A stretch of DNA of 64,000 nucleotides from Polyangiaceae bacterium (lineage in GTDB: Bacteria; Myxococcota_A; Polyangia; Polyangiales; Polyangiaceae): positions 310,001 through 374,000 of the forward strand of contig JAHBVY010000001.1 of the NCBI GenBank assembly GCA_019637265.1. Direction: 5' to 3'. Positions 540 to 61,558 of the stretch are shown piece by piece. The notes beneath the pieces were generated by a model. It had not been told where the DNA came from and did no database searches. It worked only from the letters and a program-made list of their open reading frames with translations. The position numbers and the translations under genes were made by a program. The number at the start of each line of letters is the position of its first letter. Within the stretch, counting starts at the first letter, position 1.

Positions 540-714
540 CAGCTCAGCTGACGAGCGCCTCGCAGCGCTCCCGCACGCCGACATCCCGGCGCCACGCAGC
601 GCACTGCCAAACCCCCAAAAAAACCAGGTCACTCCGACCGTCCACCGAGGTGCAGCGACAGACAGCTCGGCTGACGAACGCCCTCGCGAGTTGCGTTTGG
701 GATGACTGAGCGCT
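540..714. repeat. Convergent spacer with T/G-run repeat and two GCTGACGARCG motifs
   Basis: This spacer lies between converging genes. It holds a degenerate copy of the window's T-run/G-run spacer repeat at 593-623, read on the minus strand as seven T, five G, TTTGGCAGTGCGCTGCGTG. Copies of the motif GCTGACGARCG are at 547-557 and 670-680. No gene or convincing terminator hairpin was found. Confidence 0.5.
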
Positions 715-1824
715 CTAGAAGTCCAGCTTCTGGAAGCGCCAGTACGCGGTGCCGAGGCACGCCGCCATCCACAGGGTGGCGACCAGGAAGGGCTGAAACT
801 CCAAAATAGGCACGTTGAGCACCGCCGCTGACGCGGCGTCCTCCAGGCGGCCGAAGCCGGGGAAGGCGATCTTCGCGAAGTCACTCACCGCCTTCACGGT
901 GCTGAAGCTCTCCGCCAGCTCCCCGATCTCCCCGATGCGCTGCGTCCAGCCGACGAAGGTGTCGATGATGAAGTAGAACAGGTAGCCGATGATGATGGCG
1001 AAGGCGGTGCTGCGGGTGAACACGCCGATCCACGCGACCATCGAGTAGAGCAGCGCCGCCGAGAAGATGGTGAGCGGGATGCCGGCGAACAGCCGCCCGT
1101 GCCACACCCCCGTGCGGATCCCGACCCCCACGAAGACCAGCAAATACACCGCGAGCAAGAGCGCGCTGTAGAGCACCATCCCGCCCAAGAACTTCCCGAA
1201 GAACAGCTGCGCGCGGGAGATGGGCTTGCTCACCAAGACGTCCACCGCGCCCGCCGCGAGCATCCCAGGGAAGTACCCGGCGCAGCCCGCGATGAACAGC
1301 CACATGGAGAACTTGAAGAGCAGCCACACGGTCCAGTGCAGCCAAATCTCCACGCCCTTGTCCATCTCGCTGAGGCCCTTGGTGCGCTGGTCCACCACCT
1401 CTTGAGCGGCCTCGAGCTGGCTCGTCTGCAGGTCCTTCAGCTCGCGGCGCTTGTCGTCGATGGCGTTGTTCGCGGCGGTGAGCGCTTCGTCCCCCGGCGT
1501 CCCTGAACGAGCCAGCTCGGCGAAGCGCGCCTGCGCTGCTTCGTACTCCTCGCGCTTCCGGCGCAGGGCCTCGTCGTGCTTGAGCTCCTGGTGGACCAGC
1601 TCGCGGTACTTGGCGTCCCACAGGAAATCGAGGCCGAGGCCCGCCTCTTCGTCGCTGCCGAACGGCAGCGACATCACCTGCTTGCCCTCCGCGTTGTTCT
1701 TCACCTTGAAGCCGGCGAGGAAGCCGATGGCGGTGAGCACCAACACCCCCGCCAGGATGAAGAACACCACCTGCTGCTTGCTCTGGCGCCAGGTGTCTTC
1801 GACGATGGCCAAGAACGCGGTCAT
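715..1824 (-). CDS. ABC-2 type transporter permease with large coiled-coil extracytoplasmic domain
   Basis: This 369-residue membrane subunit of an exporter is encoded directly after its ATPase; the ATPase stop and this ATG share one base. A first membrane helix (about 19-39) is followed by a long charged alpha-helical segment (about 70-155, rich in E, K, R and A, likely coiled coil). At least five further hydrophobic helices come after about residue 163. The stretch VLVSKPISRAQLFFGKFLGG (about 197-215) is characteristic of ABC-2 permeases related to NatB/YhaP and gliding-associated exporters. The helical insert between the first two membrane segments should lie outside the cytoplasm. Substrate is unknown; lipid, ion or protein export are all possible. 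Confidence 0.85.
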   Translation of the reverse strand: MTAFLAIVEDTWRQSKQQVVFFILAGVLVLTAIGFLAGFKVKNNAEGKQVMSLPFGSDEEAGLGLDFLWDAKYRELVHQELKHDEALRRKREEYEAAQARFAELARSGTPGDEALTAANNAIDDKRRELKDLQTSQLEAAQEVVDQRTKGLSEMDKGVEIWLHWTVWLLFKFSMWLFIAGCAGYFPGMLAAGAVDVLVSKPISRAQLFFGKFLGGMVLYSALLLAVYLLVFVGVGIRTGVWHGRLFAGIPLTIFSAALLYSMVAWIGVFTRSTAFAIIIGYLFYFIIDTFVGWTQRIGEIGELAESFSTVKAVSDFAKIAFPGFGRLEDAASAAVLNVPILEFQPFLVATLWMAACLGTAYWRFQKLDF

Positions 1825-2774
1825 TAGCGGGTCCCTCCCACGCCCTGATCTTCCTGGGCGCTGATGACGTCGATGAACGCCTGCTCCAGGTTCGCGGTGC
1901 GCGGGCGAATCGCGAAGATGCTCACGCCGCCGCCGCGCAGGAGGTCGACCACCCGATCGACGTGGCTCGAGTCGGGCAGGGTGATCTCGAATCCGTTGGC
2001 GCCGCGCTCGATGTCACCGAGCTCCTCGAGCGGCGCGTTCACCGCGTCGACGAGCGGCCCCGTCTCGAATGCGACCACCAAGCTCCCTCGATCGACGCTC
2101 ACGGCGTTGCGGATCTCGTCCACGCTGCCCTGCTGCAGCACCTTGCCGTGGTGCATGATCGCGATTTGATCGCAGATCTGCTCGACCTCGAGCAAGAGGT
2201 GCGAGTTCATCAGCACCGTGGTGCCGTTCGCGCACAGCCCCTTGATGACCTCGCGGATCTGGTGGCGACCCACCGGATCCACGCCGTCCGTCGGCTCGTC
2301 CAAGATCACCAGCTCGGGCTTGCCCAGCATGGCCTGGGCGAGGCCCACGCGCTGGTTCATGCCCTTCGAGTAGCGGGAGATCTTGGTGTCCCCCCACTCC
2401 TTCATCCCCACCAGCTCGAGCTTCTCGTCCACCTCGCGCTCGAGCTCGGCGCCCTCCAGGCCCGACAGCTTGCCGAAGTAGCGGCACACGCCGCGCCCCG
2501 TGAGGTAAGCCGGGAAGCGGTGGCCCTCAGGTAGGTAGCCTACCTTACGACGTGCGTCCTTGGTGCCGATGTCGCGCCCCAGCAGCCAGGCGTGGCCGCT
2601 GGTGGGGGAGACGATGGAGAGCAGCGTCTTCACCAGGGTGCTCTTGCCCGCGCCGTTGGGCCCGAGCAGGCCGAAGGCGCAGCCTTGGGGCACCTTGAGA
2701 TCCAGCGCCTTCAGCGCTTGGACTTTCCCACGGTAAATCTTGGTGAGGGCCTTGGTCTCGACGGCGAGCGTCAT
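1824..2774 (-). CDS. ABC transporter ATP-binding protein
   Basis: This 316-residue ATPase partners the permease encoded immediately downstream. Walker A is GPNGAGKST (38-46), the signature is YSKGMNQRVG (about 135-144), Walker B is LVILDEPTDGVDP (155-167) and the switch His is in MNSHLL (His192). The 'YSKGMNQR' signature and the C-terminal extension of about 90 residues after the ATPase core are typical of ABC-2 exporter ATPases (CcmA/DrrA/NatA group). It is the first gene of a two-gene operon, with an 80-base gap to the iminopeptidase gene upstream. The nucleotide-binding assignment is certain; the cargo is not known. Confidence 0.93.
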   Translation of the reverse strand: MTLAVETKALTKIYRGKVQALKALDLKVPQGCAFGLLGPNGAGKSTLVKTLLSIVSPTSGHAWLLGRDIGTKDARRKVGYLPEGHRFPAYLTGRGVCRYFGKLSGLEGAELEREVDEKLELVGMKEWGDTKISRYSKGMNQRVGLAQAMLGKPELVILDEPTDGVDPVGRHQIREVIKGLCANGTTVLMNSHLLLEVEQICDQIAIMHHGKVLQQGSVDEIRNAVSVDRGSLVVAFETGPLVDAVNAPLEELGDIERGANGFEITLPDSSHVDRVVDLLRGGGVSIFAIRPRTANLEQAFIDVISAQEDQGVGGTR

Positions 2775-2853
2775 AAGCGTGCCGGTGCTACCAGATTATC
2801 GGCCGCCGCGCTGGCCAAAGTGCGGCGGCGCCTCGGCTGGCCACATTGCCGCT

Positions 2854-3813
2854 CTAGGGCCCGGCCGCGAAGCGATCGGTCGCGCGGACGAGGCGATCCG
2901 TGATGCCCGGCTCGAAGGCGGAGTGCCCGGCGTCCGGCACGATGTGCAGCGCCGCCTCCGGCCAGGCGCGGTGCAGCTCCCAGGCGGTTTCCGCTGGGCA
3001 AACCACGTCGTAGCGCCCCTGGACGATGACCGCCGGGATCCCCCGGAGCGCCGGCGTCCCCGCGATCAGCTGATTCGGGTGCTCGAAGAAGCCCCCGTTC
3101 ACGAAGTAGTGGCACTCGATGCGGGCGAAGGCGAGGCTGAACTCGTCCTCCGCCGAGTGCTCCACGTGCTCGGCGTCCACCAAGAGGAAGCTGGTGGAGC
3201 TCTCCCACACGCTCCAAGCGCGGGCCGCGCGCTGGCGCACGGCGTGATCCTCGCTGGTCAGGCGCCGGTAGTAGGCCTGCATCAGGTCGCCTCGCTCGGC
3301 CTCGGGGATCGGCGCGAGGAAGTGCTCGAACGCCTCCGGGAACAGGCGGCTGGCGCCCTCTTGATAGAACCAGGTGAGCTCCTTGGGGCGCAGCAGGAAG
3401 ATGCCGCGCAGCACCAGCTCGGTCACCACCTCGGGGTGCTGCTCGGCGTAGGCGAGGGCGAGGGTGCTGCCCCAGGAGCCGCCGAACACCTGCCAGCGCT
3501 CGATCCCGAGGTGCTGGCGGAGCCGCTCGATGTCCGCCACCAGCGCCCAGGTGGTGTTGTCCTCCAGGCAGGCGTGGGGGGTGCTCTTCCCGCAGCCCCG
3601 CTGATCGAACAGGACGATGCGGTAGCGCTCCGGGTCGAAGAAGCGGCGCTGACGCGGGTCGCTGGCGCCGCCTGGCCCACCGTGGAGGAACACCACCGGC
3701 TTACCCGCTGGGTTGCCTGACTGTTCGTAGTACAGGGTGTGCCGATCGCTCACGGGGAGCATCCCGTGGTCGTACGGTTCGATGGCGGGGTACAGGGGAC
3801 GGAGCTCGGACAC
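2854..3813 (-). CDS. pip: Proline iminopeptidase (S33 alpha/beta hydrolase)
   Basis: This cytoplasmic exopeptidase releases N-terminal proline from peptides. The protein of 319 residues has the oxyanion motif HGGPGG (about 44-49), DQRGCGKS, the nucleophile elbow GGSWGS (Ser about 113), the acid in GRYDVVCP and the catalytic His in DAGHSAFEPG near the C terminus. All are diagnostic for the proline iminopeptidase subfamily. A longer frame exists upstream, but the GTG at 3813 gives the usual N terminus (SELRPLYPAIEPYDHGML) and has a G-rich ribosome site a few bases before it. It is transcribed divergently from the lipoprotein gene at 4019. Confidence 0.92.
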   Translation of the reverse strand: MSELRPLYPAIEPYDHGMLPVSDRHTLYYEQSGNPAGKPVVFLHGGPGGASDPRQRRFFDPERYRIVLFDQRGCGKSTPHACLEDNTTWALVADIERLRQHLGIERWQVFGGSWGSTLALAYAEQHPEVVTELVLRGIFLLRPKELTWFYQEGASRLFPEAFEHFLAPIPEAERGDLMQAYYRRLTSEDHAVRQRAARAWSVWESSTSFLLVDAEHVEHSAEDEFSLAFARIECHYFVNGGFFEHPNQLIAGTPALRGIPAVIVQGRYDVVCPAETAWELHRAWPEAALHIVPDAGHSAFEPGITDRLVRATDRFAAGP

Positions 3814-4018
3814 GGTCCCCCGTATACCCGAAGTGCGCGAGCCGAGCACGCCCGCAGGATCTCATCAAGTGACGGGCATTTCGCTGAGCCGCGCGTGCTA
3901 TGAGCAGCGCGTGCTCCACCTCAGGCGAACGCGATCGCTCCCGGGAGACGGCCTCGCGCGTGGGGATCACCCGGTGACGCGTGGCTGCTCGAGGGGCCGA
4001 GCGGAGCCCGCGGCGGGG

Positions 4019-4798
4019 GTGAGCGTCCGCTCGAGTTGGGCCAGGCGGGGCTTGATTGGGCCCAGCTCGATCAGGCCCGGCTCGATCGGGCTCGGCTCGA
4101 TCGGGCTCGGCTTGGTGATGCTGGCGAGCGCCTGCAGCAAGGAGACACCGGATCCGACCTGCGACACGGAGCGTGAGCAGGCGCGAGCCGCGGCGCTGCG
4201 TGGGGAGGCCGAGCCCGCGCGGCGCTCCCTCGAGGCGGCGCGGGCCGCGTGTCCGGAGAAGCTCGCGTTCGATCTCGATCGCATCGAGGCGCAGATCGTT
4301 CGCCACGAACGGCGCGCGGAGGAGCTCGCCGCTCGTGAGAAATCGCGGGAGGTGGCGCGCGCGCCGCTCAGCGCCTTCGTTTCGTGGGTGGGGCGATCAC
4401 GAGCGAGTGACAAGCGCCTGCCGGGCGCGGAGTGCGCGGCGCGCGGAGAGCCAGGCTTCGGTTATTGCCGTGCGGAAATGGAGCTCAGCGGCGGGCTGAC
4501 GGCGACGGTGCACTACCTGAGCCGCGACGCCGCGGAGGTGTTCGGCTACCAGGCCCAGGTGGCGCTGCCGGTGACGTGCGCTGACTTGGGACCGAACCGC
4601 GTGGTGCGGCGCTGGTCTCAGGGCGGGGACGAGCTCAGCCACTGCGAGCTCACGGGGCCCGCGCTCAAAGGGCTCACCGCGCTGCTCCGGGTGACCCAGA
4701 CGGACGCGGGTGAGGCGACGAGCGTGGTGCGCGTCTTCTCGCGCGCCTACGCCGATCGCGATCCAGAGCTCACGGCGGCGCTCGGCGCCCGGCCCTGA
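4019..4798 (+). CDS. Predicted lipoprotein of unknown function
   Basis: The 259-residue product has a lipoprotein signal peptide ending in LVMLASAC, so it should be a lipid-anchored envelope protein. The mature N-terminal part is an Ala/Glu/Arg-rich helix (EREQARAAALRGEAEPARRSLEAARAACPEKLAFDLDRIEAQIVRHERRAEELAAREKS), probably coiled coil. A compact C-terminal domain contains three conserved-looking Cys (AECAARGEPGFGYC, VTCADL). I chose GTG 4019 because it gives the lipoprotein signal; the open frame runs further upstream but reads as non-coding. The hydrophobic core of the signal is built from tandem five-residue repeats (see repeat at 4051-4110). No family recognised. Confidence 0.6.
   Translation: MSVRSSWARRGLIGPSSIRPGSIGLGSIGLGLVMLASACSKETPDPTCDTEREQARAAALRGEAEPARRSLEAARAACPEKLAFDLDRIEAQIVRHERRAEELAAREKSREVARAPLSAFVSWVGRSRASDKRLPGAECAARGEPGFGYCRAEMELSGGLTATVHYLSRDAAEVFGYQAQVALPVTCADLGPNRVVRRWSQGGDELSHCELTGPALKGLTALLRVTQTDAGEATSVVRVFSRAYADRDPELTAALGARP
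4051..4110 (+). repeat. Four tandem 15-bp repeats encoding the signal-peptide core
   Basis: Four units of 15 bp are present. The last two are identical (CTCGATCGGGCTCGG) and the first two are diverged. The unit length is a multiple of three, so in frame they encode LIGPS-SIRPG-SIGLG-SIGLG, the hydrophobic core of the lipoprotein signal peptide. Slippage would change signal length without a frameshift. Confidence 0.85.
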
Positions 4799-6161: not shown

Positions 6162-6196
6162 ACGCACGGCCACGCCAAACCCAAAAAAAAGAGGCG
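6162..6196 (-). repeat. Degenerate T-run/G-run spacer repeat
   Basis: On the minus strand this reads eight T, GGG, TTTGGCGTGGCCGTGCGTG. It is a degenerate relative of the dispersed spacer repeat found throughout this window. It lies in the 236-base spacer before the phosphatase gene. Confidence 0.5.
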
Positions 6197-7626: not shown

Positions 7627-7644
7627 TCGGTGCCGTCCAACCCC
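7627..7644 (-). repeat. Dispersed spacer 18-mer, 17/18 match
   Basis: On the plus strand this is TCGGTGCCGTCCAACCCC, one base different from the reverse complement of GGGGTTGGACGGCACCGC. Confidence 0.8.
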
Positions 7645-11520: not shown

Positions 11521-11564
11521 CGCGCTGCGTCGTACGGCGCTGCCCAACCCCCTCCGCCGGGTTG
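11521..11564 (-). repeat. Degenerate spacer repeat with perfect 8-bp inverted repeat
   Basis: This is a relative of the dispersed G-run repeat (minus strand GGGGGTTGGGCAGCGCCG). CCCAACCC at 11541-11548 pairs with GGGTTGGG at 11557-11564. Confidence 0.5.
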
Positions 11565-13805: not shown

Positions 13806-13859
13806 TTACTCGGGGTGGGCAGCCAGGGCAACCAGGCGCACGGCCGCGCATCGGGAGAT

Positions 13860-13880
13860 CGTCCAACCCCCCCTCCCTCG
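13860..13880 (-). repeat. Degenerate G-run spacer repeat
   Basis: Plus strand CGTCCAACCCCCCCTCCCTC; it matches the GGGGTTGGACG half of the dispersed 18-mer and lies between two minus-strand genes. Confidence 0.45.
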
Positions 13881-15086: not shown

Positions 15087-15282
15087 AGGCAAAGCGCCAG
15101 CGGACGCCAGCGGCCTCGTGGGGGCTTGGTTCAGGGCCCGATCCGGTCAGCCAGGATGGGTCGGCTCGAGCGGGCGGCCCGGGTCATGGTGGATCGGTTT
15201 TTGGGGGTTGGGAGCGTTGCGATGCCCTGCGCGCCCCGCACGCCGATTGACAGCCGTGCCCTGGGCGCCGGAGATTGGAGCC

Positions 15283-17602: not shown

Positions 17603-17630
17603 AGCCAGCGCTCCCCAACCCAAAAAAACT
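17603..17630 (-). repeat. Degenerate T-run/G-run spacer repeat
   Basis: On the minus strand this reads seven T, GGG, TTGGGGAGCGCTGGCTGA. It sits in the 148-base spacer before the FHA/sigma54 activator gene. Confidence 0.45.
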
Positions 17631-19569: not shown

Positions 19570-19595
19570 AGCGGCGATCAGTTCGCCGCCAGACG

Positions 19596-19644
19596 GACCA
19601 GGGAAACCGCCCCCATGCGGGGCGAGGGCACGGTTTCCCTGGTC
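19596..19644. terminator. Long hairpin after the sigma-54 activator gene
   Basis: Arms GACCAGGGAAACCG (19596-19609) and CGGTTTCCCTGGTC (19631-19644) are perfect 14-mers around a 21-base loop that can itself fold (CCCC/GGGG). It lies 27 bases past the activator stop. There is no T-run on either side, so it may act as a transcript-end stabiliser or a bidirectional terminator of another type. Confidence 0.6.
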
Positions 19645-19691
19645 CTCTGCTCGGCGCTGCTTCCCTTCACGCCGCTCTAGTTGTTCATTTG

Positions 19692-19723
19692 AGGACGACA
19701 AACGGTAAACCGTTTGTCGTCCT
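19692..19723. repeat. Near-perfect 32-bp palindrome (15-bp arms, 2-bp centre)
   Basis: AGGACGACAAACGGT (19692-19706), AA, then ACCGTTTGTCGTCCT (19709-19723). The arms are perfectly complementary. It is in the convergent spacer between the sigma-54 activator gene and the PglZ-like gene. With a two-base centre it could be a dimeric protein-binding site, a cruciform or a terminator stem without a T-run. Confidence 0.9.
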
Positions 19724-19785
19724 AGCGCGTCGCTGGGAGCCCAGCGAGCGGGTGGGCTCGTGGTCTCACCTCCGCCAGGAGGATC

Positions 19786-19808
19786 GGGGTTTGGGGTTTG
19801 GGGTTTGG
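19786..19808 (+). repeat. Telomere-like G-run tract, possible G-quadruplex
   Basis: Three runs of GGGG separated by TTT, then a final TTTGG. It sits in the same convergent spacer as the palindrome at 19692 and belongs to the G-run/TTTGG spacer repeat family (continuing CAGATCGCTGCGTG). Confidence 0.8.
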
Positions 19809-19851
19809 CAGATCGCTGCGTGCATTAGGCAGGGCTGCGAATCATACGGCG

Positions 19852-22410: not shown

Positions 22411-23082
22411 ACATAACCCGGGGTGCCAGAGCAGGCGTCGGTGGGGAAAGTTTTCGGCGAGTCCTTGGCCGCAGGTGCCCTGACGGCCACCCAGTGACTG
22501 CGGCGCCGCGCGCGGGCTCGAGGCGCTACCAACCCCCCCCAAAAAAAAGCCTGGAGAATTTGATGGGGTGATTCGAGGCGGCGCGCCTGCGTTCGAGGCG
22601 GCACGGTCGCCTCACCACTCGAATGGTCTGGCTCCTCGTGGTGTCGCGGCCCGCGGTATCGCGAGCGGCTCGTCGACGGACCTCCACGTGGGAGGCCCGC
22701 TCGATGGGCGTTTGACGGCGCTCTCGAGGCTGCTTAGAGTGGCAGGGTCCTGAAGCCCTGCTCACGGTGATCCAAGGCAATTGAATCCCTGCAATGCGTT
22801 GAACCCGGGAGGCCGATCCACGCCAGGAGCGCTAGGCCCAGACCCACTCACTGGGAAGCCAGATCGGTGTGAGGCGTCACCCACCTAGCTGATGCTAGGG
22901 GTTCATTGGTCCGAGGGTCCGTGGGCGGGTTTCAGGGCGCTATGGGCGGCCGTCCTCGGCGCTCCTCGTCCGCTGCCACCACCAGAAGCCGCTCACGCTG
23001 CTCGGTGGCGAGCACGCCGGACATCGGGGCGCGCGGGCGGGCTTCCATCAGGGCCGCCGGTTGACTACGGTGGGGGGCCAAG
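22411..23082. other. Gene-free divergent spacer (672 bp)
   Basis: No gene is supported here. It separates the PglZ-like gene (minus) from the cupredoxin-like gene (plus) and so must hold both promoters, though none stands out. A degenerate spacer repeat (minus strand eight T, eight G, TTGGTAGCGCC) is at 22528-22550. The rest is somewhat less GC-biased than coding sequence and has no repeats I could see. Confidence 0.5.
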
Positions 23083-27181: not shown

Positions 27182-27199
27182 GGGGTTGGACGGCACCGC
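27182..27199 (+). repeat. Dispersed spacer 18-mer, perfect copy
   Basis: GGGGTTGGACGGCACCGC, preceded by a fifth G and followed by AGCGTGA. It lies 47 bases after the FadL-like gene. Confidence 0.95.
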
Positions 27200-35030: not shown

Positions 35031-35326
35031 TTTTTCGCGATCTAACTTCGTAACCTACTGAAATCACTTGCATTTTTGAGGTGCGGATCGAGCGCGGCAG
35101 CTGCGTCCATGATCGCGCTCTCCACGTTTTTTCTGAGGGGGGGGTTGGACGGCACCGCGCCGTGAGTGCGCCTTGGTCCCAGCCCCGTCCACCGGCGCGG
35201 CCAGCCGTCCGTACACCTGACGGATCACCCAATCAGCACCCCTGACGGGCTGCGAGCGTCAGTGAACCTGACGGGCTGCCCGCACCAACGCCACGACGAT
35301 GGAACGTCCGTACACCTGACAGCGCC
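35031..35326. other. lexA promoter region and repeat-bearing spacer
   Basis: No gene is supported. The AT-richer part (35025-35080) should hold the lexA promoter. A perfect dispersed 18-mer is at 35141-35158. Two copies of CGTCCGTACACCTGAC (35206-35221 and about 35304-35319) and two of CCTGACGGGCTGC (about 35250 and 35268) lie just past the stop of the cyclic-nucleotide-binding gene. Confidence 0.6.
35141..35158 (+). repeat. Dispersed spacer 18-mer, perfect copy
   Basis: GGGGTTGGACGGCACCGC within a run of eight G, followed by GCCGTGAG. Confidence 0.95.
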
Positions 35327-35794: not shown

Positions 35795-35887
35795 GCTCCG
35801 CCGACTCTACACGACCTCTCACCAATTGTTGCGTTTACGGCGCCCCGCGGCCGCACCAAGCTGGTTCGGCAGGCTGGTAGGCCATTC

Positions 35888-35905
35888 GCGGTGCCGTCCA
35901 ACCCC
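35888..35905 (-). repeat. Dispersed spacer 18-mer, perfect copy
   Basis: Plus strand GCGGTGCCGTCCAACCCC, the exact reverse complement of GGGGTTGGACGGCACCGC, in the spacer between the cyclic-nucleotide-binding gene and the tonB-like gene. Confidence 0.95.
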
Positions 35906-36019
35906 CAACCCCCGAGCCCCCAACCGAGTCGAAGCGCGGGCCCAGGGTGGATCGCGGCACTACCCACGCACCCGACACCAGCGCGCCCTGCTGCGCCGTG
36001 ATCCGGTGCAGCGCTCGTC

Positions 36020-43363: not shown

Positions 43364-43471
43364 GGCGCGCGGAGTCTAGACCTTCGCACCGAAGCGCGCC
43401 GCCTCGAAGTGTCTGACGCGGTCACGGGAGCCGGGTCCGAGGTGCAGGACCAGGGCGATCTCGTAGGATTG

Positions 43472-43489
43472 GGGTTAGACGGCACCGCG
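43472..43489 (+). repeat. Dispersed spacer 18-mer, 17/18 match
   Basis: GGGGTTAGACGGCACCGC, one base off the consensus (A for G at position 7), in the spacer between the TerB-like and acyl-CoA dehydrogenase genes. Confidence 0.85.
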
Positions 43490-49156: not shown

Positions 49157-49789
49157 TCGGCCTACCTCCGTTATCGCCGCTTGACAGCGGGGGCAGCCTA
49201 CACGGGCAGGCGCCGGGGACTCAAGCCCGGAAGCCGCCTTCGCTTCGTTTCCGTCATCCTTTCTTTTTTCTCGCGGCGACGCGCGCTCGGTGACGGCGCC
49301 GCCCAGCTCGCGCCCGGTGCTTGTGTCCGGTGCTCGCGTCCAGCGCCTACGTCGAGCGCGCCCCGGGATGCCGGCGCTCGTCAGCGCCGTGCGGCGCGGT
49401 GCCGTCCAACCCCCTCCTGTCCCCCAACCGTAGAGGCCCTCACCGCCTTGGGTGGTGTCTCCGTGAGGCCCTCCGTGACCCCTTGACAAGGGTCCTCATC
49501 GCAGCCGATTTCCCCGGGTGTCGCCCGGCCGAGACCACACTTGACACCCTGGATAGCACCTCACTACGGTGCGCTCGCTCGGGCCAGAGGGACCCTGTTC
49601 CGGGCGGTTTCTTCCCCCCTCCATCCCGATCACCTCGAGCTGAAGCTCGCCTCGGCAGCGCCTGCTCCCCTCAGCGTGCGCCTGCCTCCCCAGCACCGCT
49701 CCTCCTCGCTGCAGGGCCCACCTTGGCCCGGCGCCCGGGCCGACCTGGCCAACCTGCGGAATCGCTGCTCCTCCCGGACTCGGACTGAC
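49157..49789. other. Divergent promoter region upstream of nuoE (633 bp)
   Basis: No gene is supported; the reading frame that continues upstream of nuoE looks non-coding and has no good start. This region must hold the promoter of the nuo operon and that of the zinc-ribbon gene. A perfect dispersed 18-mer is at 49396-49413 and a GCTGACGARCG motif (minus strand) at 49375-49385. Confidence 0.5.
49396..49413 (-). repeat. Dispersed spacer 18-mer, perfect copy
   Basis: Plus strand GCGGTGCCGTCCAACCCC, the exact reverse complement of GGGGTTGGACGGCACCGC. Confidence 0.95.
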
Positions 49790-58631: not shown

Positions 58632-58819
58632 CGCCAGCTGTCGTCAGGCGGACGAACGGCGCCGAGCGGTGAGGCGCGCCCGCCGTGGACGCTGCTCGCG
58701 GTGCCGGCGCATCAGTCAGGCTGTCGAACCATGGGGCGTTCGGACCCTTCGCGGCGGCGCAGGCCGCGTCGAGATCGAAGGCACGAAGCGCGGGTTCTTG
58801 GGGTTGGACGAGAGTCGCC
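58632..58819. other. Convergent spacer after the nuo genes
   Basis: No gene is present. It contains GTCAGGCGGACGAACGGCG near 58643 and a degenerate copy of the G-run repeat (GGGGTTGGACGAGAGTCG) at 58799-58816. Confidence 0.4.
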
Positions 58820-61412: not shown

Positions 61413-61558
61413 CGGGTAGGCGAGGGGCGGGGCTTGTTTGGGGGTTGGCTCACGCTGAGCGTGGCCTCTGGCGCTCGCATGGCCGCGCGTGCGTTGGATG
61501 GTCAGCTCTGATGACTTCTGGCCTCGAGCGGTGTCAAAGAGTGGTGGCCGTGGGTGGC

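What the first reader, a model, noticed from the sequence alone, without database searches (positions are those of the whole stretch)
27182..27199. Dispersed 18-mer (GGGGTTGGACGGCACCGC) marks gene boundaries across the window
The same 18-mer occurs perfectly at 27182-27199, 35141-35158, 35888-35905 (minus) and 49396-49413 (minus), and with one mismatch at 7627-7644 (minus) and 43472-43489. All copies are outside genes. More degenerate relatives (T-run or A-run next to GGGGGTTGG/GGGGGTTTGG) are in at least ten other spacers: near 593, 6162, 11521, 13860, 15197, 17603, 19786, 22528, 58799 and 61435. Four perfect 18-mers in 64 kb cannot be chance. The core is asymmetric, so it does not look like a simple palindromic REP element or a terminator, and its orientation relative to genes varies. 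It could be a binding site for a nucleoid or segregation protein, a remnant mobile repeat, or a processed small RNA.
Basis: seen in the sequence. Interest (0 to 1): 0.7.

Follow-up and report, generated by a model that had tools for sequence, protein, structure and literature searches.

The report
Species-specific tiny mobile DNA repeats
The repeated 18-letter sequence is the conserved end of a family of very small DNA insertions (tens of bases) scattered about 330 times between genes of this one bacterium, while its nearest sequenced relative carries a differently spelled family of its own; how such tiny pieces copy themselves without a recognisable transposase is unknown.

Summary
The 18-mer occurs 332 times (up to 1 mismatch) in the window's 5.7-Mb genome, on both strands equally; the reversed control gives 0. 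In 1.6 Mb, 113 of 115 copies (up to 2 mismatches) lie outside predicted genes. It is not a palindrome and shows no conserved fold. One 165-bp form carries a 145-bp block placed, or deleted, exactly at GG^TT, sometimes in tandem. None of this is in 58 relatives, except that the only same-genus genome has its own family, GGGGTGAGRCGCG (191 copies, against 6 here). In the few aligned spacers the two species never share a site. Two rare in-gene copies (RecC-like, DnaE2-like) coincide with extra residues that relatives lack, so copies are insertions. I find no RAYT/Y1 transposase, reverse transcriptase or integron integrase. Best reading: non-autonomous miniature mobile repeats, REP- or SDR-like in behaviour but failing REP's defining features. 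Binding-site, terminator and uptake-signal readings are less likely. Copies avoid sharing a spacer with each other or with sister families, which is unexplained.

The parts
27182..27199 (+). 18-mer core of family A (exact)
   Evidence: upstream tract ...GGGATCG
35134..35160 (+). family A element: G tract plus core (core 35141-35158, exact)
   Evidence: spacer 294 bp here versus 60 bp in the sister species
35886..35913 (-). family A element: (GGGGGTT)2 tract plus core (core 35888-35905, exact)
   Evidence: spacer 201 bp versus 86 bp in the sister species
49394..49418 (-). family A element: tract plus core (core 49396-49413, exact)
7627..7644 (-). family A core, 1 mismatch
43471..43488 (+). family A core, GTTAGAC variant (1 mismatch)
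   Evidence: the A variant at this position occurs in 13% of copies
595..626 (-). family B element: T/G tract + GGGGGTTTGGCAGTGCGCTGCG
19786..19820 (+). family B element with reiterated GGGGTTT tract
22517..22548 (-). family C element: T8G8TTGGTAGCGC...
6163..6190 (-). related element: T8GGGTTTGGCGTGGC
11532..11555 (-). related element: GGGGGTTGGGCAGCGCC
13851..13879 (-). related element: GGGGGGGTTGGACGATC
15196..15223 (+). related element: T5GGGGGTTGGGAGCGTTGC
17604..17628 (-). related element: T7GGGTTGGGGAGCGC
58792..58815 (+). related element: GGGGTTGGACGAGAGTC
61434..61460 (+). related element: TTTGGGGGTTGGCTCACGC

Best explanation
The 18-mer is the constant part of a family of very short, non-autonomous mobile repeats: a C-poor, G/T-rich arm of about 10-20 nt, then GGGG TTRGACGGCACCGC, with little conserved beyond. 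Related families in the same genome share the arm and GGGGGTT but carry other heads. Copies arise by insertion of a few tens of bases, mostly into spacers away from promoters, in either orientation, and occasionally in frame inside genes. Spread is recent and lineage-specific, so the sister species has a different head. Shown: abundance, spacer restriction, shared arm, turnover, and extra residues at two genic copies. Inferred: that copying is an active process, and that some enzyme of the cell or of a lost or unseen element recognises the arm and core. The enzyme is not identified.
For: 332 copies and reversed control 0; core sharp, flanks random; 113/115 intergenic with random orientation and avoidance of gene starts; several families with the same arm; 0-1 copies in each of 58 relatives and arm pattern 170 against 0-2; sister species has its own GGGGTGAGRCGCG family, 191 against 6 here and 0-9 elsewhere; no shared sites in the few aligned spacers; longer 165-bp form with the same ends, with block arrays; RecC-like gene carries about 12 extra residues against the sister species, and about 27-33 against four other relatives, at the core; DnaE2-like gene carries about 16-18 extra residues against close homologues at a family B copy, and the sister species carries its own motif in that same loop.
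Against: No Y1/RAYT transposase, no reverse transcriptase, no integron integrase over cut-off; no multi-copy near-identical genes in 1.6 Mb and one IS110-type transposase fragment at a contig end. No target-site duplication or exact DNA-level empty site was seen; spacers do not align between the species. Self- and cross-exclusion within spacers is not a normal property of mobile repeats. Insert lengths are uncertain because the loops compared are variable.
Confidence: 0.72

Rival explanations
1. DNA-uptake-type signal: a species 'dialect' word enriched by competence plus recombination, as the DUS of Neisseriaceae or the USS of Pasteurellaceae.
For: Different word in the sister species, random orientation, spacing more even than random, core conserved while flanks are not, T/G tract beside the core. 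DUS dialects are described in PMC3630211.
Against: Copies are inserted sequence, not words spelled in place; about 1 per 17 kb, far sparser than the 943-4265 DUS per genome quoted in PMC3630211; several word families with one arm coexist; exclusion is limited to the same spacer, not to the kilobase scale. Competence was not tested.
Confidence: 0.1
2. Binding site of an abundant nucleoid, segregation or transcription-blocking protein, kept once per intergenic spacer.
For: At most one A or B element per spacer more often than chance allows (A with A 5 against 12.0; B with B 2 against 11.7; A with B 6 against 19.8 +/- 3.6), unlike a palindromic REP in the same genome (4 against 1.2).
Against: Sequence and sites not conserved in the sister species; multiple different heads; far more sequence constancy than 332 sites need for recognition (inference); copies occur in divergent spacers as well.
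Confidence: 0.1
3. Transcription terminator or 3'-UTR RNA element.
For: Tandem-spacer copies lie nearer the upstream gene's end (median 102 against 192 nt).
Against: Orientation to transcription is random (36 against 30 in tandem spacers) and copies occur in divergent spacers; no fold above shuffles; no Rfam match.
Confidence: 0.04
4. Integron-like cassette or attachment sites joined at G^TTRRRY.
For: GTTRGAC fits GTTRRRY; a 145-bp block sits exactly at GG^TT in front of different heads and in tandem.
Against: Best integrase_gron hits are far under cut-off, at the level Xer-type recombinases give in all 14 control genomes; other families (GTTTGGC) and the sister motif (GTGAGRC) do not fit; no matching RYYYAAC partner box seen; the same data fit deletion between GGTT repeats.
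Confidence: 0.04

Closest known systems
REP / REPIN elements (GTAG- and CGTC-tagged; PMC3116915, PMC3733652)
   Same: 20-60 bp, hundreds of copies, mostly extragenic, species-specific families, occasional in-gene copies (PMC3733652 notes many inside replication and repair genes, as here with RecC-like and DnaE2-like genes); CGTC-REPs also lack a known transposase.
   Different: No palindromic stem, no terminal GTAG tag, rarely in inverted pairs, no RAYT in the genome; a C-poor tract of variable length on one side.
Small dispersed repeats (SDRs) of cyanobacteria (Elhai et al. 2008, recalled from memory; not held in the library)
   Same: Very small (about 21-27 bp), intergenic, apparently mobile, no known enzyme.
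   Different: Different lineage; here several heads share one arm, and there is a 165-bp composite form.
DNA uptake sequence dialects (PMC3630211)
   Same: Species-specific spelling in close relatives, both strands, even spacing.
   Different: Longer, sparser, nearly all intergenic, arises by insertion, several families at once.
Rickettsia palindromic elements (mentioned in PMC3733652)
   Same: In-frame insertion of small repeats into genes.
   Different: RPEs are palindromic; these are not.

Membership tests
REP/REPIN (GTAG or CGTC) | Imperfect palindrome / stem-loop of 5-13 bp | tested here: not met
   folding no better than shuffles on either strand by a meaningful margin; core contains only a 3-bp CGG..CCG
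REP/REPIN (GTAG or CGTC) | Terminal GTAG or CGTC tag beside the stem | tested here: not met
   no GTAG; CGTC occurs inside the reverse complement but no 8-9 bp stem follows (definition from PMC3733652)
REP/REPIN (GTAG or CGTC) | Inverted doublets predominate | tested here: not met
   only 5 same-spacer A pairs among 119, fewer than expected
REP/REPIN (GTAG or CGTC) | Cognate RAYT (Y1_Tnp) gene for GTAG type | tested here: not met
   PF01797: 0 matches in a 98.5% complete genome
REP/REPIN (GTAG or CGTC) | Short, high-copy, extragenic | tested here: met
DNA uptake sequence | Genome-wide enriched word on both strands | tested here: met
DNA uptake sequence | Word enhances DNA uptake | not testable with these tools
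   needs a transformation assay
DNA uptake sequence | Word spelled in place, also frequent within genes | tested here: not met
   113/115 intergenic; genic copies coincide with extra residues
Integron attC/cassette | IntI integrase | tested here: not met
   TIGR02249 no match over cut-off
Integron attC/cassette | R'' RYYYAAC paired with R' GTTRRRY | tested here: inconclusive
   GTTRGAC present; no RYYYAAC partner seen by inspection of the long element
Retroposon (tail-bearing) | Reverse transcriptase source | tested here: not met
   PF00078: 0 matches
DDE-type MITE | Terminal inverted repeats and target-site duplication | tested here: inconclusive
   no inverted ends seen in alignments; TSD could not be read because no DNA-level empty site aligned

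The most novel reading that the evidence does not exclude
A modular class of ultra-short mobile elements: one C-poor GGGGGTT arm is joined, at GG^TT, to interchangeable heads and blocks by an unrecognised enzyme, with local exclusion that leaves about one element per intergenic spacer and with rapid change of head between sister species.
Probability: 0.15. Interest if true: 0.8.

Novelty: new variant of a known kind. Interest (0 to 1): 0.52.

Why it matters
Most very small bacterial repeats with a known or proposed mover are palindromic and tied to RAYT transposases. A large, young, non-palindromic population with no RAYT, no reverse transcriptase and no integron integrase, replaced by a different population in the next species, is a good test case for how such tiny pieces spread, why they keep to one per spacer, and whether they serve the host.

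Tried and rejected
RNA structure: shuffled-energy tests on core and flanks, arm-flank pairing, RNAalifold and half-swapping test on the long element, Rfam: nothing convincing. Inverted second end near the core: flanks show none. Orthologous spacers in the sister species: not alignable; one apparently shared spacer turned out to be a neighbouring one. Transposase partners: Y1_Tnp, RVT_1 and integrase_gron negative, one IS110-type fragment. An integron reading was considered seriously because of GTTRGAC and the GG^TT block junction. Several in-gene T/G matches (GspF-like, XerC/D-like, beta-lactamase-like, cysteine desulfurase-like) did not look longer than normal by eye and were not counted as insertions. 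One search was a wasted query.

Full report
Observation. The 18-mer GGGGTTGGACGGCACCGC is present as described, apart from a one-base shift at 43471. The window is C1:310001-374000 of a 5.71-Mb genome in 21 contigs, which holds 332 copies with up to one mismatch, 159 forward and 173 reverse, while the reversed pattern gives none. I read 1.6 Mb base by base and called genes with my own hexamer model. Of 115 copies with up to two mismatches, 113 lie in spacers, which make up 15.6% of that DNA.

Anatomy. The logo shows a constant core, G at -1, a stretch of roughly eight to ten positions before it nearly without C (C 10% over the last ten), a weak (G/A)C(C/T) after it, and random flanks. Position 7 of the core is G in 84% and A in 13%. 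Copies sit in convergent, tandem and divergent spacers in both orientations, away from gene starts. Neither strand folds better than shuffles by a useful margin.

Relatives in the same genome. K-mer and spacer-against-spacer comparisons show several families that share the arm and GGGGGTT(T)GG: family B (GGGGTTTGGCAG..., 51 copies, 45 intergenic), family C (GGGGGTTGGTAGCGC...), a family with GATCGGGGGGTTGGACGGGTAGTC and others. About twenty sites are the right end of a 165-bp form whose left end is arm-GGGGGTT. Its 145-bp interior is followed by different heads and occurs three times in tandem at C1:948170-948619, and with two core units at C1:929480-929780. Insertion of the block at GG^TT and deletion between GGTT repeats fit equally well.

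One per spacer. With spacer length and gene orientation controlled, A and B elements avoid themselves and each other within a spacer (A-A 5 against 12.0, B-B 2 against 11.7, A-B 6 against 19.8 with sd 3.6), whereas a palindromic REP in the same genome does not (4 against 1.2). Spacing is more even than random (cv 0.82 against 1.12). Elements in neighbouring spacers are not avoided. I cannot explain this; local target immunity, selection against pairs, or a per-spacer function are all open.

Species specificity. Among 58 relatives the 18-mer is absent apart from two single one-mismatch hits, and the arm pattern is absent apart from two hits in the same-genus genome G001 and one elsewhere. G001 has its own dispersed family, GGGGTGAGRCGCG, 191 copies against 6 here and 0-9 in the others, with a moderately C-poor lead-in. 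In the few alignable intervals the two species never carry elements in the same spacer (small numbers).

Insertions. One core copy lies in frame in a RecC-like gene. Against the G001 orthologue the protein has about 12 extra residues at the core, and against four other relatives about 27-33. One B copy lies in a DnaE2-like gene. Close homologues lack about 16-18 residues there, E. coli-type DnaE about 33, and G001 carries its own motif (GCGTCTCACCCC in the gene sense) in that same loop. These loops vary in length, so exact ends are not fixed, but the copies coincide with added sequence. This is the main reason for preferring mobile repeats over words selected in place.

Mover. The genome shows no Y1/RAYT transposase, no reverse transcriptase, and only Xer-level hits to the integron integrase model. 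There are no near-identical gene copies in 1.6 Mb and one IS110-type fragment at a contig end. The genome is 98.5% complete, so a missed gene cannot be excluded.

Comparison with the known. Behaviour matches REP/REPIN populations (PMC3116915, PMC3733652) and, from memory, the small dispersed repeats of cyanobacteria. REP membership fails on palindrome, tag, doublets and RAYT. DUS dialects (PMC3630211) resemble the species-specific spelling, but insertion, low density and near absence from genes argue against that reading.

Limits. Gene calls are home-made. The sister genome is fragmented (1080 contigs, 82% complete, 7% contamination). No strain-level comparison was possible.

Noticed in passing
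27222 and 41138 (window): Copies of a palindromic, GTAG-type repeat, GTAGGGGCGGGTTTSAAACCCGCCCCTAC; 38 in 1.6 Mb, yet no Y1/RAYT gene in the genome.
   Followed up: partly
about 19570-19730 (window): A copy of another roughly 160-bp repeat family (14 members in 1.6 Mb) that ends in ACGACAAACGGTAAACCGTTTGTCGT.
   Followed up: no
C1:948170-948619 of the genome (outside the window): Three tandem copies of the 145-bp block, head to tail, with different termini.
   Followed up: partly
C1:955038-958577 (DnaE2-like) and C1:1222160-1225813 (RecC-like), outside the window: The two best-supported in-gene insertions are both in DNA repair genes, and the sister species has its own element in the same DnaE2 loop.
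   Followed up: yes
C1:1559620 (beta-lactamase-like gene), outside the window: A 23-nt family B match in coding sequence without obvious lengthening; it may be the source of that sub-family or a replacement rather than an insertion.
   Followed up: no
C1:202379-206997, outside the window: A 1.56-kb duplication of glycine-rich coding-like sequence, each copy followed by a family B element.
   Followed up: no
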